From NCBI RefSeq assembly GCF_019578655.1, contig NC_063257.1, positions 11,222,001 to 11,286,000 of the forward strand: 64,000 bases of DNA. Reading direction: 5' to 3'. Of this stretch, positions 2,769-34,401 are shown piece by piece (positions within the stretch are counted from its first letter, which is position 1; the number at the start of each line of letters is the position of its first letter). Made by a program: the position numbers and the translations under genes. The stretch is from Ricinus communis. Taxonomy: Eukaryota; Streptophyta; Magnoliopsida; Malpighiales; Euphorbiaceae. The notes under the pieces are model-generated. The model made no database searches. It was not told where the DNA came from and worked only from the letters and a program-made list of their open reading frames with translations.

Positions 2769-3298
2769 ACAGTCCACTGGTATTGGGCATTAGGGATACA
2801 AAATGCAGTTTTGTATCTCTCTGTGGGCTGGATACCGAGTTGCCAAAAGCCTGCCTTTAGGTCAAATTTGGAATAGTACTGGGCCTTTTGGATGTGGACC
2901 TTGAGGCTTAGAAAGTCTGGATAAGAAATCCGGGATTAGGTTTCTTATCCCTTTTATATGCTCAACCTTAAAGTCATATCATCAACCCTTACAACATATT
3001 CAAGAAACAAAACTTTGTTAGAAAAACCTTTAACCAAATCATCCACAAAAAACCCCTCACCATAAAAGAATATGTTCAATCCTCCTCACTTTCTCAGAAG
3101 AACTAAAACGGGCCCTGCAGTACAGGAATGAATTAAGGACAGCTAATGTGTCTGCACCATTAGTCTGCACCTTCAATGGACATCAATCAACTGACTTTTC
3201 AATTTACTATAAAACCTCCTCCAGTCCCATATATTCCCATACAGATACTGTCCTCAAAATACTCCAAGCATGTTCCAGTAATAGCTTTCTTTGACCGA
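2769..3298. other. Patchwork of five short viral shards in alternating orientation
   Basis: By comparison with the longer copies, the segment reads: reverse-transcriptase shard (-) 2769-2905; post-RNase H shard (-) 2902-2978; movement-protein shard (+) 2977-3097; C-terminal-extension shard (+) 3095-3193; protease shard (+) about 3192-3296; then copy B resumes on the minus strand. Neighbouring shards share 1-4 bases at the joins (for example tgag at 2902-2905 and cag at 3095-3097), as expected for microhomology end joining. No open product results. Confidence 0.8.
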
Positions 3299-4460
3299 TT
3301 TCTTATCCCTTTTATATGCTCAACCTTAAAGTCATACCTGCTGAACCATGATTTTAATCGCAATAGTTGGGGCTCAGGCAAGGTCTTCTGGTTGGATTCA
3401 AGAATCTTGGGGAAGGAAGAGTTGTCCATCCGAACCGGGGAAGTCTTTGTCAATCGGGAAGAATTCAAACTTTTTATCCCGTACTTGTGCGAATTTCCTT
3501 GTAGGTTGTGTGATAATGTTTTTCCAAGAGGAAAACCGGCCCGATGCATATCCACAGTTGTTCTTTGTCGTGGAGCTTTTCTAGGAGGATGGCCCCCCAT
3601 GCATAGTCGGGATGCATCTGTTTGGAGAATAAGTTCTCCTGTGACGGGATTGTAAGAGGTGGCGGATTGTGGGCCGGCCTCTTTTAATTTTTGTGTTGTT
3701 TGTTCAAGCTCCCCATGGAGGGGGGTTCTTTTCGAGCATCTTTGAGAGGTGGCACGTGTAACTAGACAGTGTGGAATGGCCTCTCGAACATAATTCGGGA
3801 TTCCGAGGCTGTTGAATTTGTTTCTTTGATAAATTTTCTTAGGAAAATTATCAAGTTCCTTTGTCAGTGGGGACCATATGTGTCGGCCATTCTTGAAATG
3901 CATTCCAAGAAATTCAATTTCGTTGGCGATAAAGCTCTTCTTTCGGATAGCATAATGCCATATTTTTGGATGATGGCAAGGAAACTGTATGATTGGTGAT
4001 GGTCCTCTAGCATTTCCGAAAATAGAAGGATGTCGTCGATATAGATCAAAGAAGAGTAAAGGATAGGCCCAAAAATCTCAATCATTGTCTTCCCGGAATT
4101 GAGATGGGGCCGTCTTGAGCCCAAAAGGCATATGATCCGGTATTGGGCATTAGGGATACAAAATGCGTTTTGTATCTCTCGTAAATTTGGATACCGAGTT
4201 GCCAAAAGCCCGCCTTTAGGTCAAATTTGGAATAATCTTGGGCCTTTTGGATGTGGACCTTGAGATTTGAGATTCGAGGGAGAGGGAATTTGTTGTCTTG
4301 AAGGAAATGGTTTAAAGGTTTGTAGTCTATGACAAGCCTCTTTTTCCTCGGATTCTTTCGGACCTTTTCTCCACATAAAAGGCTTGGCAAGCCCATTGTG
4401 AAGTAGTGGGCTCAATTAAACCCTGCTGTAACAGTGTCAGGCATTCTGATCGGGCAAGGG
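3299..4460 (-). pseudogene. Copy B: reverse transcriptase and RNase H region (broken)
   Basis: On the minus strand the frames 4560-4327, 4396-4082, 4205-3864 and 3903-3199 carry successive parts of the Caulimoviridae RT and RNase H: L-V-I-D-Y-K-P-L-N early in RT, the catalytic Y-I-D-D at 4032-4043, and the RNase H segment with its first Asp (Q-T-D-A-S). The enzyme would have copied pregenomic RNA into DNA. The frame changes at least three times, so it cannot encode an intact polymerase. Next to the same region of copy A, 6.77 kb away, many differences are 1-3 base losses at CAG/CTG sites. It lies downstream of the copy B protease in the normal polyprotein order. Confidence 0.9.
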
Positions 4461-5369
4461 CTAGGTCTGTGGGAGACATTCCCATGTGTGTGGCTTTAGT
4501 AGGGTTAATGTCTTCATTAAGTTTGAAGGGGAGGCCGATATAGAATTGTGGATTTTCCACGGAGGAAGAGGATGTTGGAAATGTGAATGGGATTCTGGAC
4601 AGAACTGAAGGAATTTTTCTGTGTATGAAAGGAATGGAGGAATAGTATTCGTCACAGAAAACAGATTTGAAGTTTCAGTGTATGACCTAAACTGTCTTTT
4701 GAACTTTATACCAGTTGGAAGGATTTGGAGCTTTTGAGCTTGGTGATAAACATCAAATCCTATCAGAATATCCTTGCTTGGAAGATCTGAACCAATGATG
4801 TGTGTCCACACAACGCAATCAGGAAAGAACTGAATTCCGATCTTCTGTCTTGTGATCAGAGTAGTTTTGAAGGTTTGACCGTTGGCTGCCCTGAAGAACT
4901 GACCATGGGGCTTCCAATACTCTGATGGGAGAACCATTGGGTTCATCATGCTTCTTTGAGCTCCAGTGTCAAAGAAAGCTATTACTGGAACAGGCTTGGA
5001 GTATTTTGAGGACAGTATCTGTATGGGAATATATGGGACTGGAGGAGGTTTTATAGTAAATTGAAAAGTTTCAGGAGGTGGAGGAGAAACAAAGAAAGAA
5101 GATAATAGGGTTGGAGAAAGAGGATATTGTATTGCATCTTCCAGAATATCCTTCTGACTTTCTTCATGCAGACCAATCATCAGGATTGGTATTTCACTAT
5201 CATCTGAATCCGAAGAAGATTCTTGTGAAGACTCCGTGGAGTCTGAGAACTCCATTTCTAACCCAAATAAGCTTTCTCGGGTAAGATCTTCTTGCTCTGA
5301 AAGTAGGGACTCTATTTCTTCTTCGAAAGAGTCTGCAAGAGATAAGGACATGCTAACTTGTTGTATCAT
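4461..5369 (-). pseudogene. Copy B: acidic linker and retroviral-type aspartic protease
   Basis: A 302-codon open stretch on the minus strand. The first part is Ser/Asp/Glu-rich (S-S-D-S-D-D-S) and follows the CCHC knuckle. The second part is a pepsin-like viral protease with the A-F-F-D-T-G-A-Q active-site block (D-T-G codons at about 4962-4970), which would process the polyprotein. The tail runs toward RT. It is one of the longest undamaged frames of the cluster. The first Met in this frame is probably not a real start, because the stretch belongs to a longer polyprotein. The D-T-G triad is intact here and in copy C but altered in copy A. Confidence 0.88.
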
Positions 5370-6352
5370 CCTTGCTGACTTTTCTGGATTCCTGGGACAA
5401 TTTTTCGCATAATGTCCCTTCCTTTTGCAGATGAAACATCTATCGGACTTGTACCCCCGGTTCCGTTTTTACGGGAAGTATTTAAATCTCTTTGGGTTCT
5501 TTTCCCTGAACTTCTTGTTGCTGCGCGTGTATTTCTGAAAATGATGTCCAGATTTCTTCTTGTGATTTGTACAGACGCAGTTGGTGGCTTTGCACTTGAT
5601 CTTTAGGTGGTTTTTGTTGCAAGCCTTTTGGACAATCAAGTCCCTTTGAGACAACCTTTTGAATAATTCACATTGATCACAGTCTCTTAATGGAAGAGAG
5701 TGTGAATTGCCAGATTCTCCAAGTGTAATAGAGGTGGTAGTCTTTTTGTATGATCATATTGTTAACCTCAGGTTGTATCTCATCTGGTAGAGAAGTGATG
5801 AATGTATACTTTAGTGTATCATCACCATCATGTCCTCCAATGACATAGTAGAGCTTGGACATAGCCGAATAATGCTTTTCCAGATCCTTCATCTTGAATG
5901 AACAACATTTTCGATCAAAGAACTCTTGTTTCTGCTGTCTTATGACAAGGTCATAACTTCCAAGGCCCGGTTATGGAGGATCGTTCTACTGGCGATGGAG
6001 TCGGCAGAGTGACAAATTGAAGCCTAGTGTATTCGGGCTGAGACTGAAACCAATCTCTTAAGCTTCCGGTAAACCTTGTGACAAATTCGGCAAGGACTTT
6101 TTTGAGTGTGGCCCCTTCAAGGGTCATCTGAAGATCAATCCATGCCAAGAATTCAGAAAGCTTATCCTTCCATTTTGATGGTGGCAAGTCATCAAAAGTG
6201 AACCAAGGTCCTGTGCTAGCTGGCTTTGGCCTTGGGTTTGGAGCTCCAGTGGGAGCAAAGAATGACTGAGCATCTTCATCTTCAGGTTCTACTACTTCTG
6301 GACTGGGATCAGTAGCAGAAGTGTTCATGAGAATTTCAGTGATGTCTGCCAT
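5370..6352 (-). pseudogene. Copy B: capsid protein region with CCHC zinc knuckle (broken)
   Basis: Minus-strand frames at 6352-5951, 5892-5677 and 5654-5469 hold the capsid domain: a P-W-F-T-F-D-D-L-P segment, L-S-E-F-L-A-W-I-D, D-W-F-Q, then K-D-L-E-K-H-Y and I-T-S-L-P-D-E-I-Q, followed by a Lys/Arg-rich tract and an intact C-F-I-C-x4-H-x4-C knuckle at about 5400-5448. This is the usual Caulimoviridae capsid plus nucleic-acid-binding knuckle. Frames shift near 5670, 5940 and at the knuckle, so no continuous capsid is encoded. The equivalent region is present inverted in copy D (17514-18443). Confidence 0.87.
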
Positions 6353-7740
6353 CTCTGAATCCGAAGAAGATTCTGAATCATACGGACTGATGAGAGATTG
6401 CTCTGGAAATTTGTCTTTAGGGGCTAGAGGAGGAGAGGATTTCTTTTGCTGGGTTTCTGTGTTTTTTGGGTAAAGGTGAGAAAATGTGCCAAATGGTACG
6501 ATAAAGGGTTTCTTGTGGTTGTTCCGGTTGTGAAAGAAAAGGGAAAGAAGAAAAGTATGAAGGAGTAATAGCTGAGTGAGGTTGAAGCCGATATGAATGT
6601 TGGAATTCGGTGGTCTTTCCGGAGATCATTTTCAATTTGATCTATTTGCTTCTTCAGCCGGGAAATCTCCTTTTGCTTTTGCATGAAAGAGGGGGTAATC
6701 GGCTGAGGTATCCGGAGTTCTTTGTCCAGAGCTTGATACTTTCTGTCAAGGATGAGTCTGATTGCAAGACTTCTTGTGAAAAAGTATCCAGCTTGTGATC
6801 CATGTTTTGAACCAAGTGCAGGGCTTGATCCAATTTGCCATCTATCTTCTTCAAGTAAGTGTTTTGGACAATAGAATTAGATGTCTGCCAGTTGAGAACT
6901 TCTTCAGGGGGTGTCAGCGGTTCTAAGTTTCCAGAAGGTGAAATCCGTGTAGGAAGGATTTCAGATCTTTTGTTCTCTGTTTTTCCCAAGGGAGGGAAAT
7001 CCTCTGGTTGTAACATGAAACATTCTTGAACCAAGGGTTGTACCGTCTGATTGTGAGGAGATGAAGTAGGTCCAAAAGTTCGTGGCGTTGTTATACTGGC
7101 CCAACGTTTTGTACCTCCTGTACAAAGCGGGCCGGGTTTCCGACCTATAAACCTTTGGATCCGACTCGATCTCCATTCGCAAGTTGCGGAAGGGGGTTTG
7201 CCATATTCAATGTTGAGTTGTGCCATAATTTCTTTGAACTCATCATAAGAAACGTCAATGACCGTTTTTCCTTCTCCGGCAAGAAACTCAATTGCCTCGT
7301 CGAACATTGGCGTTGGCTTTTTATTCTCTTCCGGGAACCATCCGGATCTCGATCATCCGGCTTAGGATGAATCTCCGAACAAGAAGTATCCAGAGACATC
7401 CTTTTCGGATTCTTCACATTGATGCGAGGGTTGACATAATCCATGTCATCATGACATAGGCACTGGCTTGCACATTTCGGGGCTACATCCCGGACAAAGT
7501 GTCCCTCTGACTTGTGCGGCATAAATCGGCCGGATGCTTGAAAGGAGTGAATAGGGACCTTCTCCCTAGGCCGTGATACTGGTTGTATCATTGATGCTTG
7601 GAAAATTGACGGTGCTGAGGAAGATTCCTCAGTTCTTGTAAAGATCGTCTTAACAGTCCCATCCTTTTGCTGTATAAAGAGGGGATCTGTGGCTTGAACT
7701 GGTTTTGATTGAGATGCCTGGAGCTTCTCATAATTTGTTA
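6353..7740 (-). pseudogene. Copy B: polyprotein linker between movement and capsid proteins, with coiled coil
   Basis: Minus-strand frames 7591-7145, 7307-6654 and 6684-6424 cover a region without enzyme motifs. It includes an F-D-E-A-I-E-F-L-A-G-E-G segment, a Q-P-E-D-F-P-P-L-G-K motif, and a Lys/Glu/Ile-rich heptad segment (E-I-S-R-L-K-K-Q-I-D-Q-I-E-N-D-L) that should form a coiled coil, as virion-associated or capsid-arm segments do in this family. The function is not known from sequence; a virion-associated role is inference. It is broken by at least two frameshifts, but the same order is preserved in copy C (16311-17219). Confidence 0.75.
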
Positions 7741-7762
7741 CCCACTCAATAGGAATTAGTTT

Positions 7763-8549
7763 CTATAGATCTTCCTTTTCAAGCTGTCGAGGAGCTTGAA
7801 CTATTGTAGGGGTTTGACCAGAATCAGCCATGATGTACAAAGCATCTGATGAGGCTTGGAAGCCTGGGATCTGCAGGTTAAGTGCATGATCCTGCAATCG
7901 ATAAACGATCTGATGGTGAAGAGTCGCTGAGAGAGCATTTTCAACTTGACTAGCTCCCGTGATTTGGACTTGTACTTTTAAGGCAGTGGATAGATAAGGA
8001 TCACTCAAAGAGAGGTTAAAGTTTGGAAAGAAAGTCAAAACAACACTACCAGTGTTGAGTGTTGTGACTATTGTCCCAATCACTGCATGTTCGTACTTGA
8101 GGTAACGAGTGTCCAAAAGCGACATCCGTCTTTGTAACAGGCAATCCCATCCTTCCATGATAGGAAAGGACAAGTCTCACAGCTCCGAGATGGAGATGAG
8201 AATAGCCTTGCTTCCGCCATTGTTCTATGAAAGAGGTGGGGATTTCTAAAGTAACATACTGCTCTTGAGAAGTAGCAGTAAGTGAACACTGAGAAAGTGA
8301 GGAGGATTGAACATATTCTTTTATGGTGAGGGGTTTTTTGTGGATGATTTGGTTAAAGGTTTTTCTAACAAAGTTTTGTTTCTTGAATATGTTGTAAGGG
8401 TTGATGATAGGTACTAGAGTATCTTCTATCTGTACGTTATCAGGAATATGGGAGATCTCAACAAGATGATCTATCTTGTTAGATATGGTTTTCTTACAAG
8501 AGGGAGATAATTGAAGGGTAGAAGTATGAGAGGTAATCTCGGTTGACAT
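7763..8549 (-). pseudogene. Copy B: movement protein domain at the polyprotein N-terminus (one frameshift)
   Basis: The start ATG at 8549 lies 27 bases after the primer-binding site. Two overlapping frames (8549-8046 and 8173-7763) together cover a 30K-type plant viral movement protein, which would have served cell-to-cell transport through plasmodesmata. Recognisable segments are V-T-L-E-I-P-T-S-F-I, the hydrophobic A-V-I-G-T-I-V-T-T-L-N-T-G-S-V-V-L-T-F-F strand pair, and S-D-P-Y-L-S-T-A-L-K-V-Q-V. A single frameshift between about 8080 and 8170 separates the halves. Copy C has the same region at 15517-16310 and D a shard at 18899-19056. Confidence 0.87.
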
Positions 8550-8576
8550 GGTGTTTAGGTTTTCTCTTCTGCTATC

Positions 8577-8594
8577 ACCAAGGCTCTGATACCA
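8577..8594 (-). promoter_or_regulatory. tRNA-Met primer-binding site, copy B
   Basis: Read on the minus strand the 18 bases are TGGTATCAGAGCCTTGGT. The first 12 match the 3' end of plant initiator tRNA-Met, the usual minus-strand primer of plant pararetroviruses and many LTR elements. It lies just upstream of the movement-protein ATG. Confidence 0.93.
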
Positions 8595-9130
8595 AAGGGG
8601 AGCCGAGAGCTGTTCATGGCATAATCCTCATGCTGTAAACTCAAAGCATGGACAGATCCTCAAGTTAAGACACAAGCGGCCTCTTGCCATGGGGGTCTTT
8701 CTACTCTTTTGGATCTTTAAATTAGCTGAGTTAGCTCTTTTGGATTACACCATAAACAGATCGTAGCAACTATTAGAACATTGCCATTGGATCAAGAGAA
8801 GAGAAATGAGAAAGTTAGAAAGCCATAAGAGAGTGTAGAGAGAGTTTTAAAGAGACTTGTTTAGAGGAAAACTTGCTTTCTTCTTATTATCAAAGACTTC
8901 TCCTTATATAGAGTGGAGAGTCGGTAGAAAATGTACAATGGTTAGTGGGTATCCCACTAAGATTAATAATACAGCACTATCAAACAAAAGTTAGTGGATA
9001 TCCACTAAGACTAATAATACAGCACTATCAAACAAAGTGGACATCCCAACGAGACTAATGTCGACCTATCAAACAAAGGTTAGTGGACATTCCACTGAGA
9101 CTAATAATACACTTCACTTACATAATAAGG
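8595..9130 (-). promoter_or_regulatory. Viral promoter and leader, copy B (TATA box and repeats)
   Basis: On the minus strand an upstream block of near-repeats (about 8937-9120) carries near-palindromic AGTGG(N)CCACT cores, including AGTGGATATCCACT at about 8994-9007. It is followed by CTATATAAGG (complement at 8902-8912) and a leader of about 300 bases ending at the primer-binding site. The TATA context is like that of other caulimovirus pregenomic RNA promoters. It would drive transcription toward lower coordinates, through copy B. Confidence 0.82.
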
Positions 9131-9171
9131 ACAAACAATAATATAAGAGAGTGGCCGACAGTCGTATGTGG

Positions 9172-10100
9172 TCAGAAGACGTCATCATATGAGTCATCAT
9201 CCATTGGCTGGGAGTCTTGCATGAGGGCTTCTTGCTGCGCCCTGGTTAAGGTAGGGTCATCCAGAGGAGTTGGAAGATCAGAGAAACAGAAATGTTCTAT
9301 GGATTGTTCAGTTGATTGATGTCCATTGAAGGTGCAGACTAATGGTGCAGACACATTAGCTGTCCTTAATTCATTCCTGTACTGCAGGGCCCGTTTTAGT
9401 TCTTCTGTGATTGGTGGAGGAGCAAGATGTAAAGGACTATCAAGCGTTCTCCAATAGTGACAGATATTTTGAGTTGCATAGGTGTCTTCTGATAGTCGGA
9501 GATAGGGCCTGTGTAATATGAAAATAGCATGGTATTCAAGCTCTGGAATTATTATGCGAGAATAACTGGTGCCCATGAATAAGTTTAAGGAGATCTCCAC
9601 ATCCATTGGTATGGAGTCTTGAACCAGGTAAGGAATCTCCATGGATAAGACCCCGAGTTAGCTTCATTATTAAAGAAGTGTAAGAGATTCATAATAGGCA
9701 CCTCTATAGCATGATGATCGTAGATAGGCACCATAGAAACCATAACTCACTTTCATGCTTTGGATGTTCAGGAGATAAGTGGTAAATCAAACACCAAGGG
9801 TAGTCTGGAAAGAAGAAGTTGGGTTGGATTGGGAGTGAGAAGATTTGTTGAAAAGTTGCCAAATAATGGAACATCATGTTTCTGGCAAAGTCTGTGACTT
9901 GTTTGGTTGTAAGGTTGTTGGGAAGGTCTGGTGGTGAAGGAGGTTGCAGTTGGATCCGGAAGGATGAGGAGGCCATAAAGATTATGGGAAGATTTATTGT
10001 AGAGGTGAGAAGAACTATAGGCTGATTCTGAGGCTTAGAAAGTCTGGATAAGAAATCCGGGATTAGGTTTCTTATCCCTTTTATATGCTCAACCTTAAAG
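9172..10100 (-). pseudogene. Copy A: polyprotein C-terminal extension downstream of RNase H
   Basis: Minus-strand frames 10150-9704 and 9642-9172 continue past the RNase H end for about 300 codons. Features: a hydrophobic-aromatic stretch (F-F-F-P-D-Y-P-W-C-L-I-Y-H-L-S), a Pro/Leu-rich middle, and an acidic tail ending D-D-S-Y-D-D-V-F before a stop at 9172. I recognise no enzyme motif. The same sequence occurs in copy C (13841-14775) in the same position before the promoter. One frame break lies near 9640-9700. It could be the end of the polyprotein or a separate downstream ORF such as some florendoviruses have. Function unknown. Confidence 0.78.
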
Positions 10101-11291
10101 TCATACCTGCTGAACCATGATTTTAATCGCAATAGTTGGGGCTCAGGCAAGGTCTTCTGGTTGGATTCAAGAATCTTGGGAAGGAAGAGTTGTCCATCCG
10201 AACCGGGGAAGTCTTTGTCAATCGGGAAGAATTCAAACTTTTTATCCCGTACTTGTGCGAATTTCCTTGTAGGTTGTGTGATAATGTTTTTCCAAGAGGA
10301 AAACCCGTCATATCCACAGTTGTTCTTTGTCGTGGAGCTTTTCTAGGAGGATGGCCCCCATGCATAGTCGGGATGCATCTGTTTGGAGAATAAGTTCTCC
10401 TGGCCGGACGGGATTGTAAGGGTGGCGGATTGTGGGCCAGCTCTTTTAATTTTGTGTTTGTTCCGCTCCCCATGGAGGGGGGTTCTTTTTGAGCATCTTT
10501 GAGAGGTGGCACGTGTAACTAGACAGGTGTGGAATGGCCTCTCGAACATAATTCAGGATTCCAAGGAACTGTTGAATTTGTTTTGCTGATAAATTTTCTT
10601 CCGGAAAATTATCAAGTTCCTTTGTCAGGTGGGGACCATATGTGTACTGGCCATTCTTGAAATGCATTCCAAGAAATTCAATTTCTCGTTGTGATAAAGC
10701 TCTTCTTTCGGATAGCATAATGCCATATTTTTGGATGATGGCAAGGAACTGTTGTAACAGTTGGTGATGGTCCTCTGCTGTTTCTGAAAATAGAAGGATG
10801 TCGTCGATATAGATCAAAGAAGAGTAAAGGATAGGCCCAAAAATCTCAATCATTGTCTTCTGGAATTGAGATGGGGCCGTCTTGAGCCCAAAAGGCATAA
10901 CAGTCCACTGGTATTGGGCATTAGGGATACAAAATGCAGTTTTGTATCTCTCTGTGGGCTGGATACCGAGTTGCCAAAAGCCTGCCTTTAGGTCAAATTT
11001 GGAATAGTACTGGGCCTTTTGGATGTGGACCTTGAGATTTGAGATTCGAGGGAGAGGGAATTTGTTGTCTTGAAGGAAATGGTTTAAAGGTTTGTAGTCT
11101 ATGACAAGCCTCTTTTTTCCTCGGATTCTTTCAGACCTTTTCTCCACATAAAAGGCTTGGCAAGCCCATTGTGAAGTAGTGGGCTCAATTAAACCCTCGC
11201 ATGTGATTAAAGGGCATTCGATCGGGCAAGGGCTAGGTCTCATGGGGAGACATTCCCATGTGTGTGGCTTTAGTAGGGTTAATGTCTTCAT
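10101..11291 (-). pseudogene. Copy A: reverse transcriptase and RNase H region (best-preserved RT)
   Basis: A 281-codon open frame at 11291-10446 holds the whole RT palm core: L-V-I-D-Y-K-P-L-N, F-D-L-K-A-G-F-W-Q-L, the M-P-F-G-L-K-T-A-P block and catalytic Y-I-D-D (10800-10811), through L-N-Y-V-R-E-A-I-P-H. RNase H follows in another frame (10512-10123), so a frameshift near 10440-10510 separates them. Upstream, the join to the protease is also frame-shifted (about 11230-11300). Most differences from the copy B equivalent are short gaps at CAG/CTG. Confidence 0.9.
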
Positions 11292-11785
11292 TAAGTTTGA
11301 AGGGGAGGCCGATATAGAATTGTGGATTTTTCCACGGAGGAAGAGGATGTTGGAAATGTGAATGGGATTCTGGACGAATCGAAGGAATTTTTCCCGTGTA
11401 TGAAAGGAATGGAGGAATAGTATTCGTCACGAAAAGCAGATTTGAAGTTTGGTGTATGACCTAAAGCATCTTTTGAACTTTATACCGGTTGGAAGGATTT
11501 GGAGCTTTTGAGCTTGGTGATAAACATCAAATCCTATCGAATATCCTTGCTTGGAAGATCTGAACCAATGATGTGTGTCCACACAACGCAATCGGGAAAG
11601 AATGAATTAGATCTTGTCTTGTGATCGAGTAGTTTTGAAGGTTTGGCCAGATTGGTACGCCTGAAGAACCGATCATGGGGCTTCCAATACTCGATGGGAG
11701 AACCATTGGGTTCATCATGCTTCTTTGAGCTCTAGTGTCAAAGAAAGCTATTACTGGAACAGGCTTGGAGTATTTTGAGGACAGT
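11292..11785 (-). pseudogene. Copy A: truncated aspartic protease region
   Basis: This is the 5'-most part of copy A. The minus-strand frame 11802-11527 includes the viral protease active-site block, but the triad reads D-T-R instead of D-T-G, so the enzyme would be dead. The viral sequence stops at about 11785, where it is joined to an oppositely oriented movement-protein shard. Frameshifts occur near 11430-11530 with several base losses against copy B. Confidence 0.85.
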
Positions 11786-11786
11786 G

Positions 11787-12300
11787 TCCCCACCTCTTTC
11801 ATAGAACAATGGCGGAAGCAAGGCTATTCTCATCTCCATCTCGGAGCTGTGAGACTTGTCCTTTCTACCGGATGAGATACAACCTGAGGTTAACAATATG
11901 ATTGCGGGCTACAAAAGACCAGTCACCCTGTTACACTTGAGAATCGGCAATTCACACTCTCTTCCATTAAGAGACTGTGTGATCAACAGGAATTATTCAA
12001 AAGGTTGTCTCAAAGGGACTTGATTGTCCAAAAGGCTTGCAACAAAAACCACCTAAAGATCAAGTGCAAAGCCACCAACTGCGTCTGTACAAATCACAAG
12101 AAGAAATCTGGACATCATTTTCAGAAATACACGCGCAGCAACAAGAAGTTCAGGGAAAAGAACCCAAAGAGATTTAAATACTTCCGTAAAAAACGGAACC
12201 AGGGGTACAAGTCTGATAGATGTTTCATCCTGCGAAAAGGAAGGGACATTATGCGAAAAATTGTCCCAGGAATCCGGAAAAGTCGAAGGATGATCTGACA
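11787..12300 (+). pseudogene. Start of copy C: movement-protein shard joined to capsid and CCHC region
   Basis: 11787-11875 matches part of the movement-protein region; at 11873-11877 it switches, within a short shared sequence, to the capsid region. From there the plus strand carries the capsid C-terminus, a Lys/Arg/His-rich tract (12005-12200) and a CCHC knuckle near 12215-12270, where the frame is damaged. This is the inversion point of the cluster: everything to the left up to 3299 is on the minus strand, everything to the right up to 17219 on the plus strand. Confidence 0.82.
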
Positions 12301-12980
12301 AGTTAGCATGTCCTTATCTCTTGCAGACTCTTTCGAAGAAGAAATAGAGTCCCTACTTTCAGAGCAAGAAGATCTTACCCGAGAAAGCTTATTTGGGTTA
12401 GAAATGGAGTTCTCAGACTCCACGGAGTCTTCACAAGAATCTTCTTGATTCGGGATGATAGTGAAATACCAATCCCGATGATTGGTGCATGAAGAAAGTC
12501 GGAAGGATATTCGGAAGATGCAATACAATATCCTCTTTCTCCAACCCTATTATCTTCTTTCTTTGTTTCTCCTCCACCTCCGAAACTTTTCAATTTACTA
12601 TAAAACCTCCTCCGGTCCCATATATTCCCATACGGATCATCCTCAAAATACTCCAAGCCTGTTCGAATAGCTTTCTTTGACACTGGAGCTCAAAGAAGCA
12701 TGATGAACCCAATGGTTCTCCCATCAGAGTATTGGAAGCCCCATGGTCAGTTCTTCAGGGCAGCCAACGGTCAAACCTTCAAAACTACTCTGATCACAAG
12801 ACAGAAGATCGGAATTCAGTTCTTTCCTGATTGCGTTGTGTGGACACACATCATTGGTTCAGATCTTCCAAGCAAGGATATTCGATAGGATTTGATGTTT
12901 ATCACCAAGCTCAAAAGCTCCAAATCCTTCCAACTGGTATAAAGTTCAAAAGACAGTTTAGGTCATACACTGAAACTTCA
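12301..12980 (+). pseudogene. Copy C: acidic linker and aspartic protease region
   Basis: Plus-strand equivalent of 5369-4680. It keeps the Ser/Glu-rich linker (12306-12450) and the protease with an intact D-T-G (about 12677-12685; T-G-A-Q-R-S-M-M-N-P). The frame breaks repeatedly at 12440-12660, where bases are missing relative to copy B. At about 12978 the sequence jumps straight from the protease tail into the middle of RT, deleting roughly 600 bases. Confidence 0.83.
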
Positions 12981-13840
12981 AAAGGCCCAGTACTATTCCA
13001 AATTTGACCTAAAGGCAGGCTTTTGGCAACTCGGTATCCGACCACGGAGATACAAAAGCGCATTTTGTATCCCTAATGCCCAATACCGGTGGGTATTATG
13101 CCTTTTGGGCTCGGGCGGCCCCATCTCAATTCCGGAAGACAATGATTGAGATTTTGGGCCTATCCTTTACTCTTCTTTGATCTATAACAGTTCCTTGCCA
13201 TCATCCAAAAATATGGCATTATGCTATCTGAAAAGAAGAGCTTTATTGGCCAACGAGAAATTGAATTTCTTGGAATGCATTTCAAGAATGGCCAGTACAC
13301 ATATGGTCCCCACCTGACAAAGGAACTTGATAATTTTCCGGAAGAAAATTTATCAGCAAAACAAATTCAACAGTTCCTTGGAATCCTGAATTATGTTCGA
13401 GAGGCCATTCCACACCTGTCTAGTTACACGTGCCACCTCTCAAAGATGCTCAAAAGAACCCCCTCCATGGGGAGCTGAACAAACAATTGTCAAAATTAAA
13501 AGAGCCGGCCCACAATCCGCCACCTCTTTACAATCCCGTCAGTGAGAACTTATTCTCCAAACAGATGCATCCTGACTATGCATGGGGGCCATCCTCCTAG
13601 AAAAGCTCCACGACAAAGAACAACGTGTGGATATGCATCGGGTCAGTTTTCCTCTTGGAAAAACATTATCACACAACCTACAAGAAATTACGGCGATCAA
13701 GCACGGGATAAAAAGTTTGAATTCTTCCCGATTGACACTTCCTGGTTCGGATGGACAACTCTTCCTTCCCCAAGATTCTTGAATCCAACCAGAAGACCTT
13801 GCCTGAGCCCCAACTATTGCGATTAAAATCATGGTTCAGC
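12976..13840 (+). pseudogene. Copy C: internally deleted reverse transcriptase and RNase H
   Basis: Begins within RT at the Y-Y-S-K-F-D-L-K-A-G-F block. A second deletion at about 13186 removes roughly 90 bases, including the catalytic Y-I-D-D, so this copy cannot have RT activity. 13221-13478 keeps the segment with Q-R-E-I-E-F-L-G-M-H-F through L-N-Y-V-R-E-A-I-P. The RNase H part follows at 13540-13830 in shifted frames. Confidence 0.85.
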
Positions 13841-14775
13841 AGGTATGACTTTAAGGTTGAGCATATAAAAGGGATAAGAAACCTAATCCCGGATTTCTTA
13901 TCCAGACTTTCTAAGCCTCAGAATCAGCCTATAGTTCTTCTCACCTCTACAATAAATCTTCCCATAATCTTTATGGCCTCCTCATCCCTTGGATCCAACC
14001 CTGCAACCTCCTTCACGCACCAGACCTTCCCAACAACCTTACAACCAAACAAGTCACAGACTTTGCCAGAAACATGATGTTCCATTATTTGGCAACTTTT
14101 CAACAAATCTTCTCACTCCCAATCCAACCCAACTTCTTCTTTCCAGACTACCCTTGGTGTTTGATTTGCCACTTATCCCCTGAACATCCAAAGCATGAAA
14201 GTGAGTTATGGTTTCTATGGTGCCTATCTACAGTCTGTCATCATGCTATAGAGGTGCCTATTATGAATCTCTTACACTTCTTTAATAATGAAGCTAACTC
14301 GGGGTCTTATCCATGGAGATTCCTTACCTGGTTCAAGACTCCATACCAATGGACAGGAGATCTCCTTAAACTTATTCATGGGCACCAGTTATTCTCAGAC
14401 AATAATTCCAGAGCTTCGGAATACCATGCTATTTTATATTACAGTGCCCTATCTCCGACTATCGGAAGACACCTATGCAACTCAAAATATCATCACTATT
14501 GGAGGCGGCAGTAGTCCTTTACATCTTGCTCCTCCACCAATCAAGGAAGAACTAAAAGCGGGCCTGCGATGGGAATGAATTAAGGACTGACTAATGTATA
14601 CGCACCATTAGTCTGCACCTTGATGGACATCAATCAACCGAACAATCCATAGAACATTTTTGTTTCTCCGATCTTCCAACTCCTCCTGGATGACTACCTT
14701 AACCGGTGAGGAAGCAAGCCCTCGTGCAAGACTCACCATGATGACTCATATGATGGCGTCTTACGACCACATCTG
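13841..14775 (+). pseudogene. Copy C: polyprotein C-terminal extension
   Basis: The frame 13751-14077 runs through the RNase H end (H-I-K-G-I-R-N-L-I-P-D-F-L-S-R-L) into the extension; 14074-14514 continues with the F-F-F-P-D-Y-P-W-C-L-I-C segment. A third frame covers 14288-14578, and the acidic tail region lies near 14690-14775. It corresponds closely to 10100-9172 of copy A on the other strand. It has no recognised domain, and several frame breaks. Confidence 0.76.
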
Positions 14776-15060
14776 TTGTCGGCCACTCTCTTATATTATT
14801 GTTTGTCCTTATTATGTAAGTGAAGTGTATTATTAGTCTCAGTGGAATGTCCACTAACCTTTGTTTGATAGTGCTGTATTATTAGTCTCAGTGGGATGTC
14901 TACTTTGTTTGATAGTGCTTTGTATTATTAGTCTTAGTGGATATCCACTAACTTTTGTTTGATAGTGCTTTGTATTATTAATCTTAGTGGGATGCCCCAA
15001 CCTTTGTACATTTTCTCTACTCTCCACTCTATATAAGGAGAAGTCTTTGATAATAAGAGG
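14776..15060 (+). promoter_or_regulatory. Viral promoter, copy C: four tandem ~50-bp repeats plus TATA box
   Basis: Repeat units begin at about 14827, 14876, 14922 and 14972 (spacing 49, 46 and 50 bases). Each starts GTATTATTAGTCT(T/C)AGTGG; the first three also contain a TTTGTTTGATAGTGCT end. The third holds the perfect palindrome AGTGGATATCCACT at 14936-14949. TATATAAGG follows at 15030-15038. This mirrors the minus-strand promoter at 8900-9120. The repeats probably act as enhancer sites, which is inference from position. Confidence 0.82.
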
Positions 15061-15216
15061 CAAGCAAGTTTTTCTCTAAACAAGTCTCTTTAAAACTCTC
15101 TCTACACTCTCTTATGGCTTTCTAACTTTCTCATTTCTCTTCTCTTGATCCAATGGCAATGTTCTAATAGTTGCTACGATCTGTTTATGGTGTAATCCAA
15201 AAGAGCTAACTCAATA

Positions 15217-15471
15217 ATTTAAAGATCCAAAGAGTAGAAAGACCCCCATGGCAAGAGGCCGCTTGTGTCTTAACTTGAGGATCTGTCCATGCTTTGAGTT
15301 TACAGCATGAGGATTATGCCATGAACAGCTCTCGGCTCCCCTTTGATTTAAAGATCCAAAAGAGTAGAAAGACCCCCATGGCAAGAGGCCGCTTGTGTCT
15401 TAACTTGAGGATCTGTCCATGCTTTGAGTTTGGCGTGAGGATTATGCCATGAGCGACTCTCGGCTCCCCTT
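15217..15471 (+). repeat. 129-bp direct duplication in the copy C leader
   Basis: 15217-15345 and 15346-15471 are near-identical: both start ATTTAAAGATCCAAA(A)GAG and end CTCGGCTCCCCTTTG just before the primer-binding site. The copy B leader (8602-8740) has only one unit. Differences between the two units are small, including a loss at the CAG-bearing segment near 15433, so the duplication looks recent. Confidence 0.88.
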
Positions 15472-15489
15472 TGGTATCAGAGCCTTGGT
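15472..15489 (+). promoter_or_regulatory. tRNA-Met primer-binding site, copy C
   Basis: TGGTATCAGAGCCTTGGT, identical to the minus-strand site at 8577-8594, and 27 bases upstream of the movement-protein ATG at 15517. Confidence 0.93.
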
Positions 15490-15516
15490 GATAGCAGAAG
15501 AGAAAACCTAAACACC

Positions 15517-16310
15517 ATGTCAACCGAGATTACCTCTCATACTTCTACCCTTCAATTATCTCCCTCTTGTAAGAAAACCATATCTAACAAGATAGATCAT
15601 TTTGTTGAGATCTCCCATATTCCGATAGCGTCGGATAGAAGATACTCTAGTACCTATCATCAACCCTTACAACATATTCAAGAAACAAAACTTTGTTAGA
15701 AAAACCTTTAACCAAATCATCCACAAAAAACCCCTCACCATAAAAGAATATGTTCAATCCTCCTCACTTTCTCAGTGTTCACTTACTGCTACTTCTCAAG
15801 AGCAGTATGTTACTTTAGAAATCCCCACCTCTTTCATAGAACAATGGCGGAAGCAAGGCTATTCTCATCTCCATCTCGGGTATGAGACTTGTCCTTTCCT
15901 ATCATGGAAGGATGGGATTGCTATTACAGACGGATGTCACTTTTGGACACTCGTTACCTCAAGTACGAGCATGCAGTGATTGGGACAATAGTCACTGACA
16001 CTCAACACCGTAGTGTTGTTTTGACTTTCTTTCCAAACTTTAACCTCTCTTTGAGTGATCCTTATCTATCCACTGCCTTAAAAGTACAAGTCCAAATCAC
16101 GGGAGCTAGTCAAGTTGAAAATGCTCTCTCAGCGACTCTTCACCATCAGATCGTTTATCGATTGCAGGGATCATGCACATAACTGCGGATCCCGGGCTTC
16201 CAAGCCTCATCGGATGCTTTGTACATCATGGTGATTCGGTCAAACCCCTACAATAGTTCAAGCTCCTCGGCGACTTGAAAGGAAGATCTACGAAACTAAT
16301 TCCTATTGAG
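15517..16310 (+). pseudogene. Copy C: movement protein domain (multiply broken)
   Basis: Starts with the same M-S-T-E-I-T-S-H-T-S as copy B. It is interrupted near 15610-15700, where CAG/CTG positions differ, and resumes at 15889-16182 with the hydrophobic movement-protein core and S-D-P-Y-L-S-T-A-L-K-V-Q-V. Near 16170-16280 nearly every CAG or CTG of copy B is read as CGG or CG, breaking the frame several times. Confidence 0.85.
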
Positions 16311-17219
16311 TGGGTAACAAATTGTAGAAGCTCCAGGCATCTCAATCAAAACCAGTTCAAGCCACGGATCCCTCTTTATCTGATGAAAAGGATGGGGAAT
16401 TTAAGGCGATCTTTACAAGGCGAGGAATCTTCCTCGGCCGTCAATTTTCCAAGCATCAATGATACAACCGATTATCACGGCCTAGGAGAAGGTCCCTATT
16501 CACTCCTTTCAAGCATCCGGCAACCAGTTTATCTTGCACAAGTCGAGGACACTTTATGCGGGATGTAGCCCCGAAATGTGCAAGCCAGTGCCTATGTCAT
16601 GATGACATGGATTATACTTGAACCCTGTTTTCGCATCAGCGGAAGAATCCGAAAGGATGTCTCTGGATACTTCTTGTTCGGAGATTCATCCTAAGCCGGA
16701 TGATCGAGATCCGGATGGTTCCCGGAAGAGAATAAAAAGCCAACGCCAATGTTCGACGAGGCAATTGAGTTTCTTGCCGGAGAAGGAAAAACGGTCATTG
16801 ACGTTTCTTATGATGAGTTCAAAGAAATTATGGCACAACTCAACATTGAATATGGCAAACCCCCTTCTGCAACTTGCAGAATGGAGATCGAGTCAGATCC
16901 AAAGGTTTATAGGCTGGAAACCCGGTACCCGTCCAGTTTTGTACAGGAGGTACAAAACGTTGGGCCAGGTATAACAACGCCACGAACTTTTGGACCTACT
17001 TCATCTCCTCAACTGTCAGATGATACAACCCTTGGTTCAAGAATGTTTCATGTTGGCGGAGGATTTCCCTCCCTTGGGAAAAACAGAGAACAAAAGATCT
17101 GAAATCCTTCCTACACGGATTTCACCTTCTAGAAACTTAGAACCGCTGACACTCCCTGAAGAAGTTCTCAACTGGCAGACATCTAATTCTATTGTCCAAA
17201 ACACTTACTTGAAGAAGAT
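16311..17219 (+). pseudogene. Copy C: linker region between movement and capsid proteins (truncated)
   Basis: Frames 16618-16974, 16749-17102 and 16990-17400 carry the same segments as copy B 7740-6850: M-S-L-D-T-S-C-S-E-I-H-P, F-D-E-A-I-E-F-L-A-G-E-G and L-P-T-R-I-S-P-S. The viral sequence stops before the coiled coil at 17214-17220, where a 7-base shared GAAGATA joins it to the oppositely oriented copy D. Confidence 0.82.
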
Positions 17220-18898
17220 AATAGGGTTGGAGAAAGAGGATATTGTATTGCATCTTCCAGAATATCCTTCTGACTTTCTTCATGCAGACCAATCATCAGG
17301 ATTGGTATTTCACTATCATCTGAATCCGAAGAAGATTCTTGTGAAGACTCCGTGGAGTCTGAGAACTCCATTTCTAACCCAAATAAGCTTTCTGGGGTAA
17401 GATCTTCTTGCTCCGAAAGTAGGGACTCTATTTCTTCTTGAAAGAGTCTGCAGAGATAAGGACATGCTAACTTGTTGTATCATCCTTGCCGACTTTTCCG
17501 GATTCTGGGACAATTTTTCGCATAATGTCCCTTCCTTTTCGCAGATGAAACATCTATCGACTTGTACCCTGGTTCCGTTTTTACGGAAGTATTTAAATCT
17601 CTTTGGGTTCTTTTCACTGAACTTCTTGTTGCTGGCGTGTATTTCCCGGGAAATGATGTCCGGATTTCTTCTTGTGATTTATGCAGACCTTGATTGGTGG
17701 CTTTGCACTTGATCTTTAGGTGGTTTTTGTTGCAAGCCTTTTGGACAATCAAGTCCCTTTGAGACAACTTTTGAATAATTCCTGTTGATCACATGATCTC
17801 TTAATGGAAGAGAGTGTGAATTGCCGATTCTCCAAGTGTAATAGAGGTGGTAGTCTTTTTGTAGCCCGCAATCATATTGTTAACCTCGGGTTGTATCTCA
17901 TCCGGTAGAGAGGTGATGAAGGTATACTTTAGTGTATCATCACCATCATGTCCTCCAATGACATAGTAGAGCTTGGACATAGCCGAATAATGCTTTTCCA
18001 GATCCTTCATCTTGAATGAACAACATTTTCGATCAAAGAACTCTTGTTTCTGCTGTCTTATGACAAGGTCATAACTTCCAAGGAACTGGTTATGGAGGAT
18101 CGTTCTGCTAGCGATGGGTCGGGGTGACAAATTGAAGCCTAGTGTATTCAGTGAGAAACGAGAAACCAATCTCTTAAGCTTCCCAGGTAAACCTTGTGAC
18201 AAATTCGGCAAGGACTTTTTTGAGTGTGGCCCCTTCAAGGGTCATCTGAAGATCAATCCATGCCAAGAATTCAGAAAGCTTATCCTTCCATTTTGATGGT
18301 GGCAAGTCATCAAAAGTGAACCAAGGTCCTGTGCTAGCTGGCTTTGGCCTTGGGTTTGGAGCTCCAGTGGGAGCAAAGAATGACTGAGCATCTTCATCTT
18401 CAGGTTCTACTACTTCCGGGTGGGATCGATGTGAAGTGTTCATGAGAATTCGGTGATGTCGCCATCTCCGAATCCAAGAAGATTCGAATCATACTGACCG
18501 ATGAGAGATTGCTCTGGAAATTTGTCTTTAGGGGCTAGAGGAGGAGAGGATTTCTTTTCTTTGGGTTTCTGTGTTTTTTGGGTAAAGGTGAGAAAATGTG
18601 CCAAATGGTACGATAAAGGGTTTCTTGTGGTTGTTCACGGTTGTGAAAGAAAAGGGAAAGAAGAAAAGTATGAAGGAGTAATAGCCGATGAGGTTGAAGC
18701 TGCCGATATGAATGTTGGAATTGCAGCAGACTGGTCTTTTCGGAGATCATTTTCAATTTGATCTATTTGCTTCTTCAGCCGGGAAATCTCCTTTTGCTTT
18801 TGCATGAAAGAGGGGGTAATCGGCTGAGGTATCCGGAGTTCTTTGTCCAGAGCTTGATACTTTGCTGTCAAGGATGAGTACAGTTGCAAGACTTCTTG
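17214..18898 (-). pseudogene. Copy D: inverted segment with acidic linker, CCHC knuckle, capsid and coiled coil
   Basis: Minus-strand order from 18898 downward is coiled-coil linker (18889-18535), capsid domain (18443-17801), basic tract and CCHC knuckle (17767-17480; the frame is broken inside the knuckle) and acidic linker (17513-17216). It matches copy B 6850-5100 with scattered stops and frame breaks. It lacks protease, RT and RNase H, and its upper end is joined at about 18899 to a movement-protein shard. Confidence 0.84.
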
Positions 18899-19537
18899 TG
18901 AGTGGATAGATAAGGATCACTCAAAGAGAGGTTAAAGTTTGGAAAGAAAGTCAAAACAACACTACCAGTGTTGAGTGTTGTGACTATTGTCCCAATCACT
19001 GCATGCTCGTACTTGAGGTAACGAGTGTCCAAAAGTGACATCCGTGCTGTAACAGGCAAGAGCAATCTCTCATCAGTCCGTATGATTCAGAATCTTCTTC
19101 GGATTCAGAGATGTAGTCTATGACAAGCCTCTTTTTTCCTCGGATTCTTTCAGACCTTTTCTCCACATAAAAGGCTTGGCAAGCCACTCAACACTGGTAG
19201 TGTTGTTTTGACTTTCTTTCCAAACTTTAACCTCTGAAAATAGAAGGATGTCGTCGATATAGATCAAAGAAGAGTAAAGGATAGGCCCAAAAATCTCAAT
19301 CATTGTCTTCTGGAATTGAGATGGAGAGCTGTTCATGGCATAATCCTCATGCTGTAAACTCAAAGCATGGACAGATCCTCAAGTTAAGACACAAGCGGCC
19401 TCTTGCCATGGGGGTCTTTCTACTCTTTTGGATCTTTAAATTAGCTGAGTTAGCTCTTTTGGATTACACCATAAACAGATCGTAGCAACTATTAGAACAT
19501 TGCCATTGGATCAAGAGAAGAGAAATGAGAAAGTTAG
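18899..19537. other. Patchwork of viral shards at the right end of the cluster
   Basis: Sequence comparison with the longer copies gives: movement-protein shard (-) 18899-19056; capsid N-terminal shard (+) about 19058-19112; RT shard (-) 19111-19185; movement-protein shard (+) 19186-19236; RT shard containing the Y-I-D-D codons (-) 19233-19325; leader shard (-) 19324-19537. Joins share 1-4 bases. The last viral base is about 19537, after which AT-rich host DNA starts. Confidence 0.8.
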
Positions 19538-20338
19538 TGTATTATAATCGAGGCCCTAGATTTTACCACAATCAAACAAAAAATGAACATGTGTTGGCAA
19601 TCTTTTCTTTCAATTATTATAATATGGATCATAAAAAAAAAAAAGAATTTTGTAAAACACGCACATTTAAAATTGAAAATAGAAAAAAGAGAATCCCACA
19701 TTTTCAGCTAAGAAAACAACTATATTCCATGTGTCCAAAAAAAATATTGACTTCTTTACTTTTTTTTAAATTATACCTTTTTTAATTTTTTTTAAATTAT
19801 AATAAAATAAATTTATAAAAATTAATATTATATTAACAATTATATATTGAATAAATTTATATATAATGTATAAAAACTAGTTGTTTATTTACGTATTATA
19901 CGATTGTTATAATTATTTTATTGTCACTATTTAAAATATTTATATTTTAACATGTGTATTTATTTTTGATACATGAAATTTTTTATTTTTTCTTAAATTG
20001 TAATAAATAAATTCAAAGTTAATATTAATATTAAAAATAATATTTTGAATAAATATCATTTTATATAATTATGAAAGTTACTTGTTTATCCGTCTGTTGT
20101 ACAACCGTCATAATTATTTTGATTATAAATAATAATATAAATTAAATTTATATATAAGATTAAATAGGTCTTTTAATATTTTATAATTAATTAAAATATT
20201 TAAAAAGAATAATAAATTAAAAATTTGAATGTCTTTGTTAGTTTTTTTATATTTTAAAATTTTATTAATATACAAATATAAAAATTATAAATAAATTAAT
20301 AAAAATATAAAATTATATATAAATTTGAATTATATATG
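19538..20338. other. AT-rich intergenic DNA
   Basis: No gene is seen. Long A/T tracts; an 86-codon frame at 19525-19785 straddles the viral edge and has no domain. Confidence 0.5.
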
Positions 20339-29790: not shown

Positions 29791-30165
29791 TTGCTAAGAA
29801 CATATCATGAATGCATACAATTCATGTATATTTGACTCTTTTTTTTTATTCTCTTCACTATACCATTTTTGCCTTTGGTTCTCATGTGAACCCAATTCCT
29901 ACACAATAAGGAACACATTTTGGCAGGTTTGCACTCTCAGGAAAAGACAATTAATCAGTCTTTGGCGTACGCATTACACACCAAAAGAGGGGTAACTTAA
30001 TAATTAGATAAATGAATGCAAAATTATCATAAACAATACAAATGTAAATAAAAATATGAAACAAAAGAACAACTTGCCGGTTTCATCAGGTAATTGGCTT
30101 TTCCATTCATGATTTAACATCATATAATGGGAATGCAATTCAAGAGAGATCCAGCATGAATTTCC

Positions 30166-30173
30166 TATAAATA
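30166..30173 (+). promoter_or_regulatory. TATA box of cysteine protease 1
   Basis: TATAAATA about 72 bases before the ATG. The same context (TTCCTATAAATAGC) is found at the same place in the duplicated gene. Confidence 0.75.
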
Positions 30174-30244
30174 GCTATTTAGATTTCAAAGGACACATCC
30201 TACCAACTATCATCATCCTGAACACCCGTATTATATTTATCAGA

Positions 30245-33034: not shown

Positions 33035-33073
<39 letters not shown>

Positions 33074-33277
33074 ACATAAGTTAAAAAATTGTATATGTAA
33101 ATATATATATATTCAGAAGGTTAACTAAATTGTGTGTTTTTTTACATAGAAAACTGAAAATAAAATCGAAAACTTCTAAGAAAAAATTGAGACCGAAACA
33201 GTTGATTCGGTTAAGCTATTTATCGGTTTTTTTTATCACCCCTAGTATATGCAATGATTTTTAGCCAACATTATTTG
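32153..33277. repeat. 3' flank of protease 1 with a CGGTT-rich dispersed repeat
   Basis: 32153-32585 is the 3' flank, partly alignable to the flank of protease 2 (36296 on). About 32586-33244 is an AT-rich insertion bounded by GGGTTCGGTTAACTGAACCG and ATCGGTTTTTTTTATCACCCC, typical of a common plant repeat family. It includes a (TA)n run near 33040-33070. The flanking sequence resumes at about 33245 and leads into a serpin fragment. Confidence 0.55.
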
Positions 33278-34304: not shown

Positions 34305-34312
34305 TATAAATA
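34305..34312 (+). promoter_or_regulatory. TATA box of cysteine protease 2
   Basis: TATAAATA in the context duplicated from the first gene, about 90 bases before the ATG. Confidence 0.75.
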
Positions 34313-34401
34313 GCCATTGAGTTTTCAAAGGACACATATCCTACCAACTATTTTTTACTTGTGATCATCACCCTGAGCAAACCCATATTATATTTATAAG
34401 A

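What the first reader, a model, noticed from the sequence alone, without database searches (positions are those of the whole stretch)
2769..19537. Shattered and reassembled endogenous pararetrovirus locus
About 17 kb consists of at least 14 pieces of one virus, from ~50 bp to ~8.5 kb, in mixed orientation, with almost no host DNA between them. Pieces are similar enough to come from one source genome. This looks like one event in which fragmented episomal viral DNA was stitched together at a break, rather than repeated separate insertions. Piece identities come from comparing the copies by eye; the single-event model is inference.
Basis: partly seen in the sequence, partly recalled or inferred. 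Interest (0 to 1): 0.75.

Follow-up and report, generated by a model that had tools for sequence, protein, structure and literature searches.

The report
Patchwork viral insertion in castor genome
A 16.8 kb stretch of castor-plant DNA is made of 17 pieces of one plant virus joined end to end, most simply explained by one botched break repair; it is a clearly readable example of a kind of insertion already known in plants.

Summary
Window 2769-19537 is 17 abutting pieces (51 bp to 8,490 bp) of one caulimovirid (endogenous pararetrovirus), in both orientations, without host DNA between them; the host is castor or very near it. At 14 of 16 internal joins the neighbours share 1-9 bases (mean 2.25; random joins 0.69; 0 of 20,000 sets as high), as reported for polymerase-theta end joining in Arabidopsis. 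No two pieces are contiguous in the source within 18 nt, so nothing suggests later insertion into earlier viral DNA. The longest piece is 1.25 laps of a 6,769-nt circle, so it is not a fragment of one monomer. The 6-10% mismatch in the five main long pairs sits mostly at CG/CHG sites, in a pattern that looks like nanopore error at methylated cytosine rather than evolution (inferred; no reads seen). Eleven short pieces differ from their best match in the long piece at 2 of 1,105 bases, one of them inside a join, so the locus looks young. A single repair episode is the best reading; whether fragments were ligated or copied by template switching is open. Rearranged viral loci and this general mechanism are already published.

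The parts
2769..2905 (-). S1, 137 bp (strand = strand carrying the viral sense, for all pieces); left host junction at 2768/2769
   Evidence: 100% to 10900-11036 in S6; 91% to S6's other copy and 93% to S9
2902..2978 (-). S2, 77 bp
   Evidence: 100% to 10029-10105; 4-nt microhomology with S1
2977..3097 (+). S3, 121 bp
   Evidence: 100% to 8289-8409 reversed
3092..3194 (+). S4, 103 bp
   Evidence: 99% to 9308-9410 reversed; its only mismatch (3094) lies in the join
3194..3295 (+). S5, 102 bp
   Evidence: 99% to 4968-5069 reversed; one difference at 3270
3296..3298 (.). 3-nt filler between S5 and S6
   Evidence: outside the exact match of either template
3299..11788 (-). S6, 8,490 bp = 1.25 laps of a 6,769-nt circle
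   Evidence: 3299-5019 repeats as 10068-11788 at spacing 6769
11787..11865 (+). S7, 79 bp
   Evidence: 100% to 8164-8242 reversed
11864..12982 (+). S8, 1,119 bp
   Evidence: matches 4666-5791 reversed
12979..15345 (+). S9, 2,367 bp; its 3' end lies 2 nt into the primer-binding site; lacks 55 bp present in S6
   Evidence: matches 8593-11021 reversed
15346..17220 (+). S10, 1,875 bp; starts 128 nt upstream of the primer site, giving a 130-bp tandem repeat with the end of S9 (15217-15473)
   Evidence: matches 6843-8722 reversed
17212..18901 (-). S11, 1,690 bp; 9-nt microhomology with S10
   Evidence: matches 5096-6779
18901..19059 (-). S12, 159 bp
   Evidence: 97% to 7985-8144, three difference blocks, which a third copy assigns to S6
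19059..19113 (+). S13, 55 bp
   Evidence: 100% to 6350-6404 reversed
19112..19185 (-). S14, 74 bp
   Evidence: 100% to 11093-11166; 97% to S6's other copy
19185..19235 (+). S15, 51 bp; its source lies inside that of S12, opposite orientation
   Evidence: 100% to 8011-8061 reversed
19233..19324 (-). S16, 92 bp
   Evidence: 100% to 10783-10874; 97% to S6's other copy
19324..19537 (-). S17, 214 bp; source runs from near a transcription start predicted by eye to 11 positions before the primer site; right host junction at 19537/19538
   Evidence: 100% to 8605-8818
8583..8594 (-). primer-binding motif TGGTATCAGAGC in S6
   Evidence: exact match
15472..15483 (+). primer-binding motif TGGTATCAGAGC in S10
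   Evidence: exact match
10446..11291 (-). open reverse transcriptase frame, 281 aa, in S6
   Evidence: PF00078 E 9.8e-28
4461..5468 (-). zinc knuckle and aspartic protease frame in S6
   Evidence: PF00077 22.2 bits against cut-off 20.7; PF00098 20.4 bits against cut-off 20.8
7763..8176 (-). movement protein frame in S6
   Evidence: PF01107 E 1.3e-8
8941..9111 (.). 48-nt tandem repeats upstream of the leader in S6 (also 14826-15007 in S9)
   Evidence: TRF

Best explanation
An endogenous caulimovirid locus in castor, made in one repair episode. A chromosomal break was healed with DNA of one virus population present in the nucleus. Ends were joined, or patches copied, at 1-9 nt of microhomology in most joins, as in polymerase-theta-mediated end joining. 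The result is a core of five large pieces (S6, S8-S11) with one short patch (S7) among them, flanked at the left host junction by five and at the right by six short viral patches (51-214 bp). At least one template was circular or multimeric, because S6 is 1.25 laps long. Some ends look like reverse-transcription ends: S9 stops 2 nt into the primer site, and S17 has about the span of minus-strand strong-stop DNA. Shown: the pieces, joins, microhomology, lap length and primer motifs. Inferred: single episode, polymerase theta, reverse-transcription ends, young age, and methylation-linked sequencing error as the cause of most mismatch between long copies. As assembled the polyprotein frame is broken in S6, and the locus most likely does nothing as a virus; its inverted repeats could feed small-RNA silencing (untested).
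For: 17 abutting pieces with no host DNA between them. Microhomology at 14 of 16 joins, mean 2.25 against 0.69 for random joins, 0 of 20,000 sets; P 0.00035 without the 9-nt join. Over all ordered pairs of the 17 pieces, only three have source ends within 30 nt, with gaps of 19, 25 and 26 nt; by my arithmetic about 2.5 are expected by chance. Five main long pairs: 20-27 difference blocks per kb, including the pair inside S6. Eleven short pieces against their best copy in S6: 2 differences in 1,105 nt, one of them in a join. Short pieces crowd the two outer ends, 61 of 6,188 arrangements, post hoc. In Arabidopsis, T-DNA left-border junctions attributed to polymerase theta average 2.4 bp of microhomology, and fillers are templated (PMC10923293, passages).
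Against: Short pieces show far fewer differences than long ones (5 blocks against 32 expected); taken at face value this would mean different histories, and my polishing explanation is unchecked on reads. Two long comparisons left out of the equality test are higher (31.9 and 39.4 blocks per kb). The clean zone of the outer edges is not seen at the inner joins near 11788-11865: 9 private blocks lie within 150 nt of them. Short patches are not clustered in the source (P 0.93). No (TA)n repeat lies within 1 kb of either flank, whereas 14-51% of large florendovirus loci in five species have one (PMC4241990, section 9). I did not compare the patch lengths (51-214 nt) with published filler lengths; they may be long for polymerase theta.
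Confidence: 0.72

Rival explanations
1. Built up over time: several separate viral insertions at one hotspot, later ones landing in or beside earlier ones, perhaps with homologous recombination between viral copies.
For: Tandem arrays, hotspots and recombination between existing copies or with an episome are proposed in the review PMC10377300 (passages). Castor is reported to hold more than 1% florendovirus sequence (PMC4241990, section 9). Short and long pieces differ in apparent divergence.
Against: No host DNA between pieces, no split piece whose halves are contiguous in the source within 18 nt, similar difference rates in the five main long pairs, 2 differences in 1,105 nt of short pieces. 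Homologous recombination would not leave 0-9 nt joins between unrelated parts of the virus.
Confidence: 0.15
2. Variant of the single-episode view: pieces were joined first outside the chromosome into a concatemer, which was then inserted as a unit through two host junctions.
For: Concatemer integration is a published proposal (PMC10377300, passages). The sequence does not tell inner joins from joins made at the chromosome.
Against: Short patches concentrate at the two host ends (post hoc), which fits patching at the host junctions better.
Confidence: 0.25
3. Assembly chimera: the patchwork was created by mis-assembly of repetitive viral reads.
For: Error-like consensus in the long copies. Castor WT05 was assembled from nanopore reads with short-read polishing (PMC9510866, passages); the window's own assembly is not identified.
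Against: A microhomology excess at the joins is not expected from mis-assembly, and 12 pieces are 51-214 nt, far shorter than long reads. The fewest private differences are in the patch-dense margins.
Confidence: 0.06

Closest known systems
Endogenous florendoviruses (Geering et al. 2014, PMC4241990), which include a Ricinus communis virus
   Same: Caulimovirid with movement protein, zinc finger, protease and reverse transcriptase in that order, in castor; the paper proposes viral DNA as filler at breaks by NHEJ or MMEJ.
   Different: Lap length 6,769 nt here against 7.2-8.5 kbp reported; no (TA)n within 1 kb; genus-level phylogeny not tested here.
Rearranged rice ERTBV segments (Kunii et al. 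2004, PMC526188)
   Same: Rearranged pieces; host junctions concentrated in the intergenic region and at replication discontinuities, read there as integration after reverse transcription (passages).
   Different: Those are segments dispersed over the rice genome; here the pieces of one locus are resolved to the base, and only two or three ends point to the primer site or start.
Endogenous banana streak viruses and tomato rearranged pararetroviruses with inverted repeats (as told in PMC10377300)
   Same: Fragmented, duplicated, inverted viral sequence in one locus; inverted repeats may give small RNAs (passages).
   Different: Different host and virus; no small-RNA or activation evidence here.
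T-DNA capture with templated fillers by polymerase theta (PMC10923293)
   Same: Microhomology of about 2-3 bp and patches templated from the incoming DNA (passages).
   Different: Viral DNA, 12 patches in one locus, kilobase core pieces, no enzyme test.

Membership tests
Caulimoviridae (endogenous pararetrovirus) | Reverse transcriptase with aspartic protease upstream | tested here: met
   PF00078 and PF00077 above their cut-offs
Caulimoviridae (endogenous pararetrovirus) | Viral movement protein | tested here: met
   PF01107, 35.1 bits against cut-off 23
Caulimoviridae (endogenous pararetrovirus) | tRNA-Met primer-binding site before the coding region | tested here: met
   TGGTATCAGAGC exact at 8583-8594 and 15472-15483; that this is the family's primer motif is recalled, and a third exact match at 55433-55444 lies in a copia-like element
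Caulimoviridae (endogenous pararetrovirus) | No integrase, no LTRs | tested here: inconclusive
   No integrase domain in the 20 frames scanned, some overlapping; the lap closes on itself; not every frame was scanned
Florendovirus | AP-RT-RH1 inside the florendovirus clade | not tested
   No labelled reference sequences were at hand; the three highest-identity hits among the 120 listed are castor proteins, 82-99% over about half the query
Florendovirus | Genome 7.2-8.5 kbp (reported range) | tested here: not met
   Lap 6,769 nt against PMC4241990 section 6; a descriptive range, but I do not file the virus under the genus
Florendovirus | ORF2 of 45-58 kDa after ORF1 | tested here: inconclusive
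   Frame 9172-9657 (161 aa) has no Pfam match; frames are broken as assembled
(TA)n-associated caulimovirid insertion | (TA)n repeat within 1 kb | tested here: not met
   TRF with the published settings: the only dinucleotide arrays in the window are at 33038 and 50280
Polymerase-theta end joining footprint | Microhomology of about 2-3 bp, above chance | tested here: met
   Mean 2.25 against 0.69
Polymerase-theta end joining footprint | Dependence on polymerase theta | not testable with these tools
   Needs genetics
Small-RNA-producing rearranged pararetrovirus | Inverted repeats giving 22-nt siRNA | tested here: inconclusive
   Inverted arms up to about 2.4 kb present; no small-RNA data

The most novel reading that the evidence does not exclude
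The locus is a record of replicative template switching rather than ligation of fragments: a broken chromosome end copied short patches from viral replication intermediates (including strong-stop DNA), then ran more than one full lap round a circular viral template, switched again several times, and ended with more short patches at the other side.
Probability: 0.3. Interest if true: 0.6.

Novelty: new member of a known kind. Interest (0 to 1): 0.4.

Why it matters
How pararetroviruses without an integrase enter plant chromosomes is called poorly understood in PMC4241990 (passage). A young-looking locus with 16 base-resolved joins gives direct, countable evidence for microhomology-driven capture, and the outer patches and the 1.25-lap piece help to separate ligation from copying models. 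It also carries a warning: divergence between copies in such an assembly may not be usable to date or separate insertions, because most of it here sits at CG/CHG sites in an error-like pattern.

Tried and rejected
Real divergence as the main source of the mismatch between long copies: rejected as the main reading. 227 of 287 difference blocks touch CG/CHG against 17% of matched controls (seven comparisons that partly reuse the same pieces, so blocks are not all independent), and 42 of 71 isolated substitutions are CCG/CTG or CAG/CGG swaps, against 2 of 177 in seven duplicate pairs elsewhere in the window. CG/CHG enrichment alone is not specific: control pairs show it too, for example 43 of 126 blocks against 18% and 93 of 176 against 8%.

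Cytosine deamination: argued against. In nine stretches held three or more times, isolated private changes run T>C or A>G 20 times against C>T or G>A 11 times, of 37. The numbers are small and the majority state is assumed to be right.

A short-read halo round every join as proof of the joins: tested in three stretches and not found at the inner joins examined. Only the outer margins are clean: on the left S6's own first private block is at 3593 (P 0.008 for none in 294 nt), with one exception at 3270; on the right no S12-S17 piece has a private block, one column being ambiguous.

Clustered sources of short patches: not found (P 0.93). A purine tract at sense 4241-4254 as plus-strand primer: no piece end falls on it. 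Target-site duplication: an imperfect 21-nt repeat (16 of 21) lies about 43 nt outside the left and 8 nt outside the right junction, reached by 61 of 2,000 shuffles; left open. Relatives in IMG/VR by one pattern scan: none confirmed.
Full report
What is there. Self-comparison of the window and base-level views of the joins show that 2769-19537 consists of 17 pieces of one virus, named S1 to S17 from left to right. Source intervals are given on S6, the longest piece. The lap length is 6,769 nt, from the spacing of the repeat inside S6 (3299-5019 and 10068-11788). S6 is 8,490 nt, 1.25 laps. The other large pieces are S8 (1,119), S9 (2,367), S10 (1,875) and S11 (1,690). Twelve pieces are 51-214 nt. 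Every base of the lap is present one to four times. With 1001-22000 as query at E 1e-5, no copy lies elsewhere in the window.

Whose virus, whose genome. Frames in S6 match reverse transcriptase (PF00078), aspartic protease (PF00077) and movement protein (PF01107); a zinc knuckle falls just under its cut-off. The primer motif TGGTATCAGAGC stands at 8583-8594 (minus) and 15472-15483 (plus). Among the 120 hits listed of 666, the three with highest identity to the reverse transcriptase frame are castor proteins: 93, 99 and 82% over 54, 46 and 47% of the query (P0023, P0043, P0092). A host cysteine protease of the window is 98% identical to a castor protein; the next highest identity among the 120 listed of 2,203 is Manihot at 81%. 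The host is therefore castor or very near it. One castor protein in that list (P0140) lies on a contig of 31,927,722 bases, the scaffold N50 printed for the WT05 castor assembly (PMC9510866, passages). This ties that protein record, not the window, to that assembly. A Ricinus communis virus is named as a florendovirus (PMC4241990, passages and sections 6 and 9). I do not file the virus under that genus: the clade test was not possible and the lap is shorter than the reported 7.2-8.5 kbp.

Joins. Exact microhomology at the 16 internal joins is 4, 2, 3, 1, -3 (filler), 2, 2, 4, 0, 9, 1, 1, 2, 1, 3, 1. The mean is 2.25 with filler as 0, and 14 of 16 joins have at least 1 nt. Random joins drawn from S6 give 0.69; 0 of 20,000 sets of 16 reached 2.25, and without the 9-nt join P is 0.00035. 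In Arabidopsis, T-DNA left-border junctions without filler, attributed to polymerase theta, average 2.4 bp of microhomology, and fillers are copied from flanks or incoming DNA, whereas classical end joining uses 0-1 bp (PMC10923293, passages).

One episode or many. If later insertions had landed in earlier viral DNA, some pieces would be contiguous in the source. Over all ordered pairs, only three have ends within 30 nt, with gaps of 19, 25 and 26 nt; my arithmetic gives about 2.5 expected by chance. The difference rate is similar in the five main long pairs, 20-27 blocks per kb, including S6 against itself (chi-square P 0.81). Two further long comparisons reuse the same pieces and were left out of that test: S6 against S9 in the region held three times (31.9 per kb) and S8 against S11 (39.4 per kb). 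Short pieces sit at the two ends: five on the left, six on the right, one inside (61 of 6,188 arrangements as compact, post hoc).

Why the mismatch is probably not history. The seven long comparisons are 84-94% identical over alignment columns. But 227 of 287 difference blocks touch a CG or CHG site in one copy, against 17% of matched control spots; 171 blocks contain gaps; and 42 of 71 isolated substitutions swap CTG with CCG or CAG with CGG. In seven other duplicate pairs of the window this swap makes 2 of 177 isolated substitutions, although CG/CHG sites are enriched at differences there too. In stretches held three or more times the isolated private change is more often T>C or A>G (20) than C>T or G>A (11) among 37, which argues against deamination as the main cause. 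Miscalls beside methylated cytosine would give such a pattern. The castor WT05 assembly was made with nanopore reads, nanopolish and five rounds of Pilon. Short reads are hard to place inside long repeats but can be placed near unique flanks, and the outer margins are indeed the clean part: S6 has no private block of its own in its first 294 nt (P 0.008), and S12 to S17 have none. Against this, the inner joins examined show no clean zone. I had no reads, so this remains inference. I saw no paper stating this exact error pattern: one search returned one paper (listing only), and the passages of PMC11971355 that I saw do not state it.

Age. Eleven short pieces (ten in the margins, and S7) differ from their best copy in S6 at 2 of 1,105 positions, one of them inside a join. 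S12 was left out of that count: it shows three difference blocks against S6, which a third copy assigns to S6. Where S6 holds two copies, the better match was taken; S1 for instance is 100% to one and 91% to the other. One difference gives about 35-65 thousand years, upper bound about 190-360 thousand, with recalled rates of 1.3e-8 and 7e-9 per site per year. This assumes identical pieces at insertion and is rough.

Reverse-transcription ends. S9 stops 2 nt into the primer site and S17 stops 11 positions before it (at least 2 of 34 ends within 11 nt, P 0.006). S17's other end lies about 30 nt downstream of a TATA-like TTTAAAA (the start site is predicted by eye). So S17 has about the span of minus-strand strong-stop DNA. 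S9 and S10 overlap by 130 nt just upstream of the primer site. Rice elements also have host junctions concentrated in the intergenic region and at discontinuities (PMC526188, passages). Here the sample is one locus, so this is suggestive only.

Verdict. Two mechanisms remain: joining of fragments, or template switching, for which the over-long S6 and the edge patches speak. Rearranged loci and filler-DNA models are already in print (PMC4241990, PMC10377300; passages). In the listings of my searches I saw no description of this locus; most of those papers I did not open.

Noticed in passing
38165-42618: Serpin-like frames at 42253-42618 and 38165-38596 (minus) are separated by a copia-like element with a 238-nt repeat at 38902-39139 and 42050-42284 (91%); it looks like a retrotransposon inside a serpin gene (names by eye; repeat).
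   Followed up: no
29815-36514: Tandem duplication (88%) of a SAG39-like cysteine protease gene; used as a control for the error pattern.
   Followed up: partly
53504-58270: Copia-like frames in both orientations between repeats of about 210 nt that are 81% alike; a nested or inverted element.
   Followed up: no
60629-62476: Two exon-like frames of a cytochrome P450 that looks like CYP79 (by eye).
   Followed up: no
20340-22059: Very AT-rich tandem duplication (80% alike) just right of the viral locus.
   Followed up: no
2705-2725 and 19546-19566: Imperfect 21-nt direct repeat (16 of 21) just outside both junctions; 61 of 2,000 shuffles score as high, so perhaps a target duplication, perhaps chance.
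   Followed up: partly
11109-11122 and 4337-4349: Purine-rich tract in the viral sense strand, a possible plus-strand primer; no piece end falls on it.
   Followed up: partly
near 13186: S9 lacks 55 bp present in S6; real deletion or assembly collapse.
   Followed up: no
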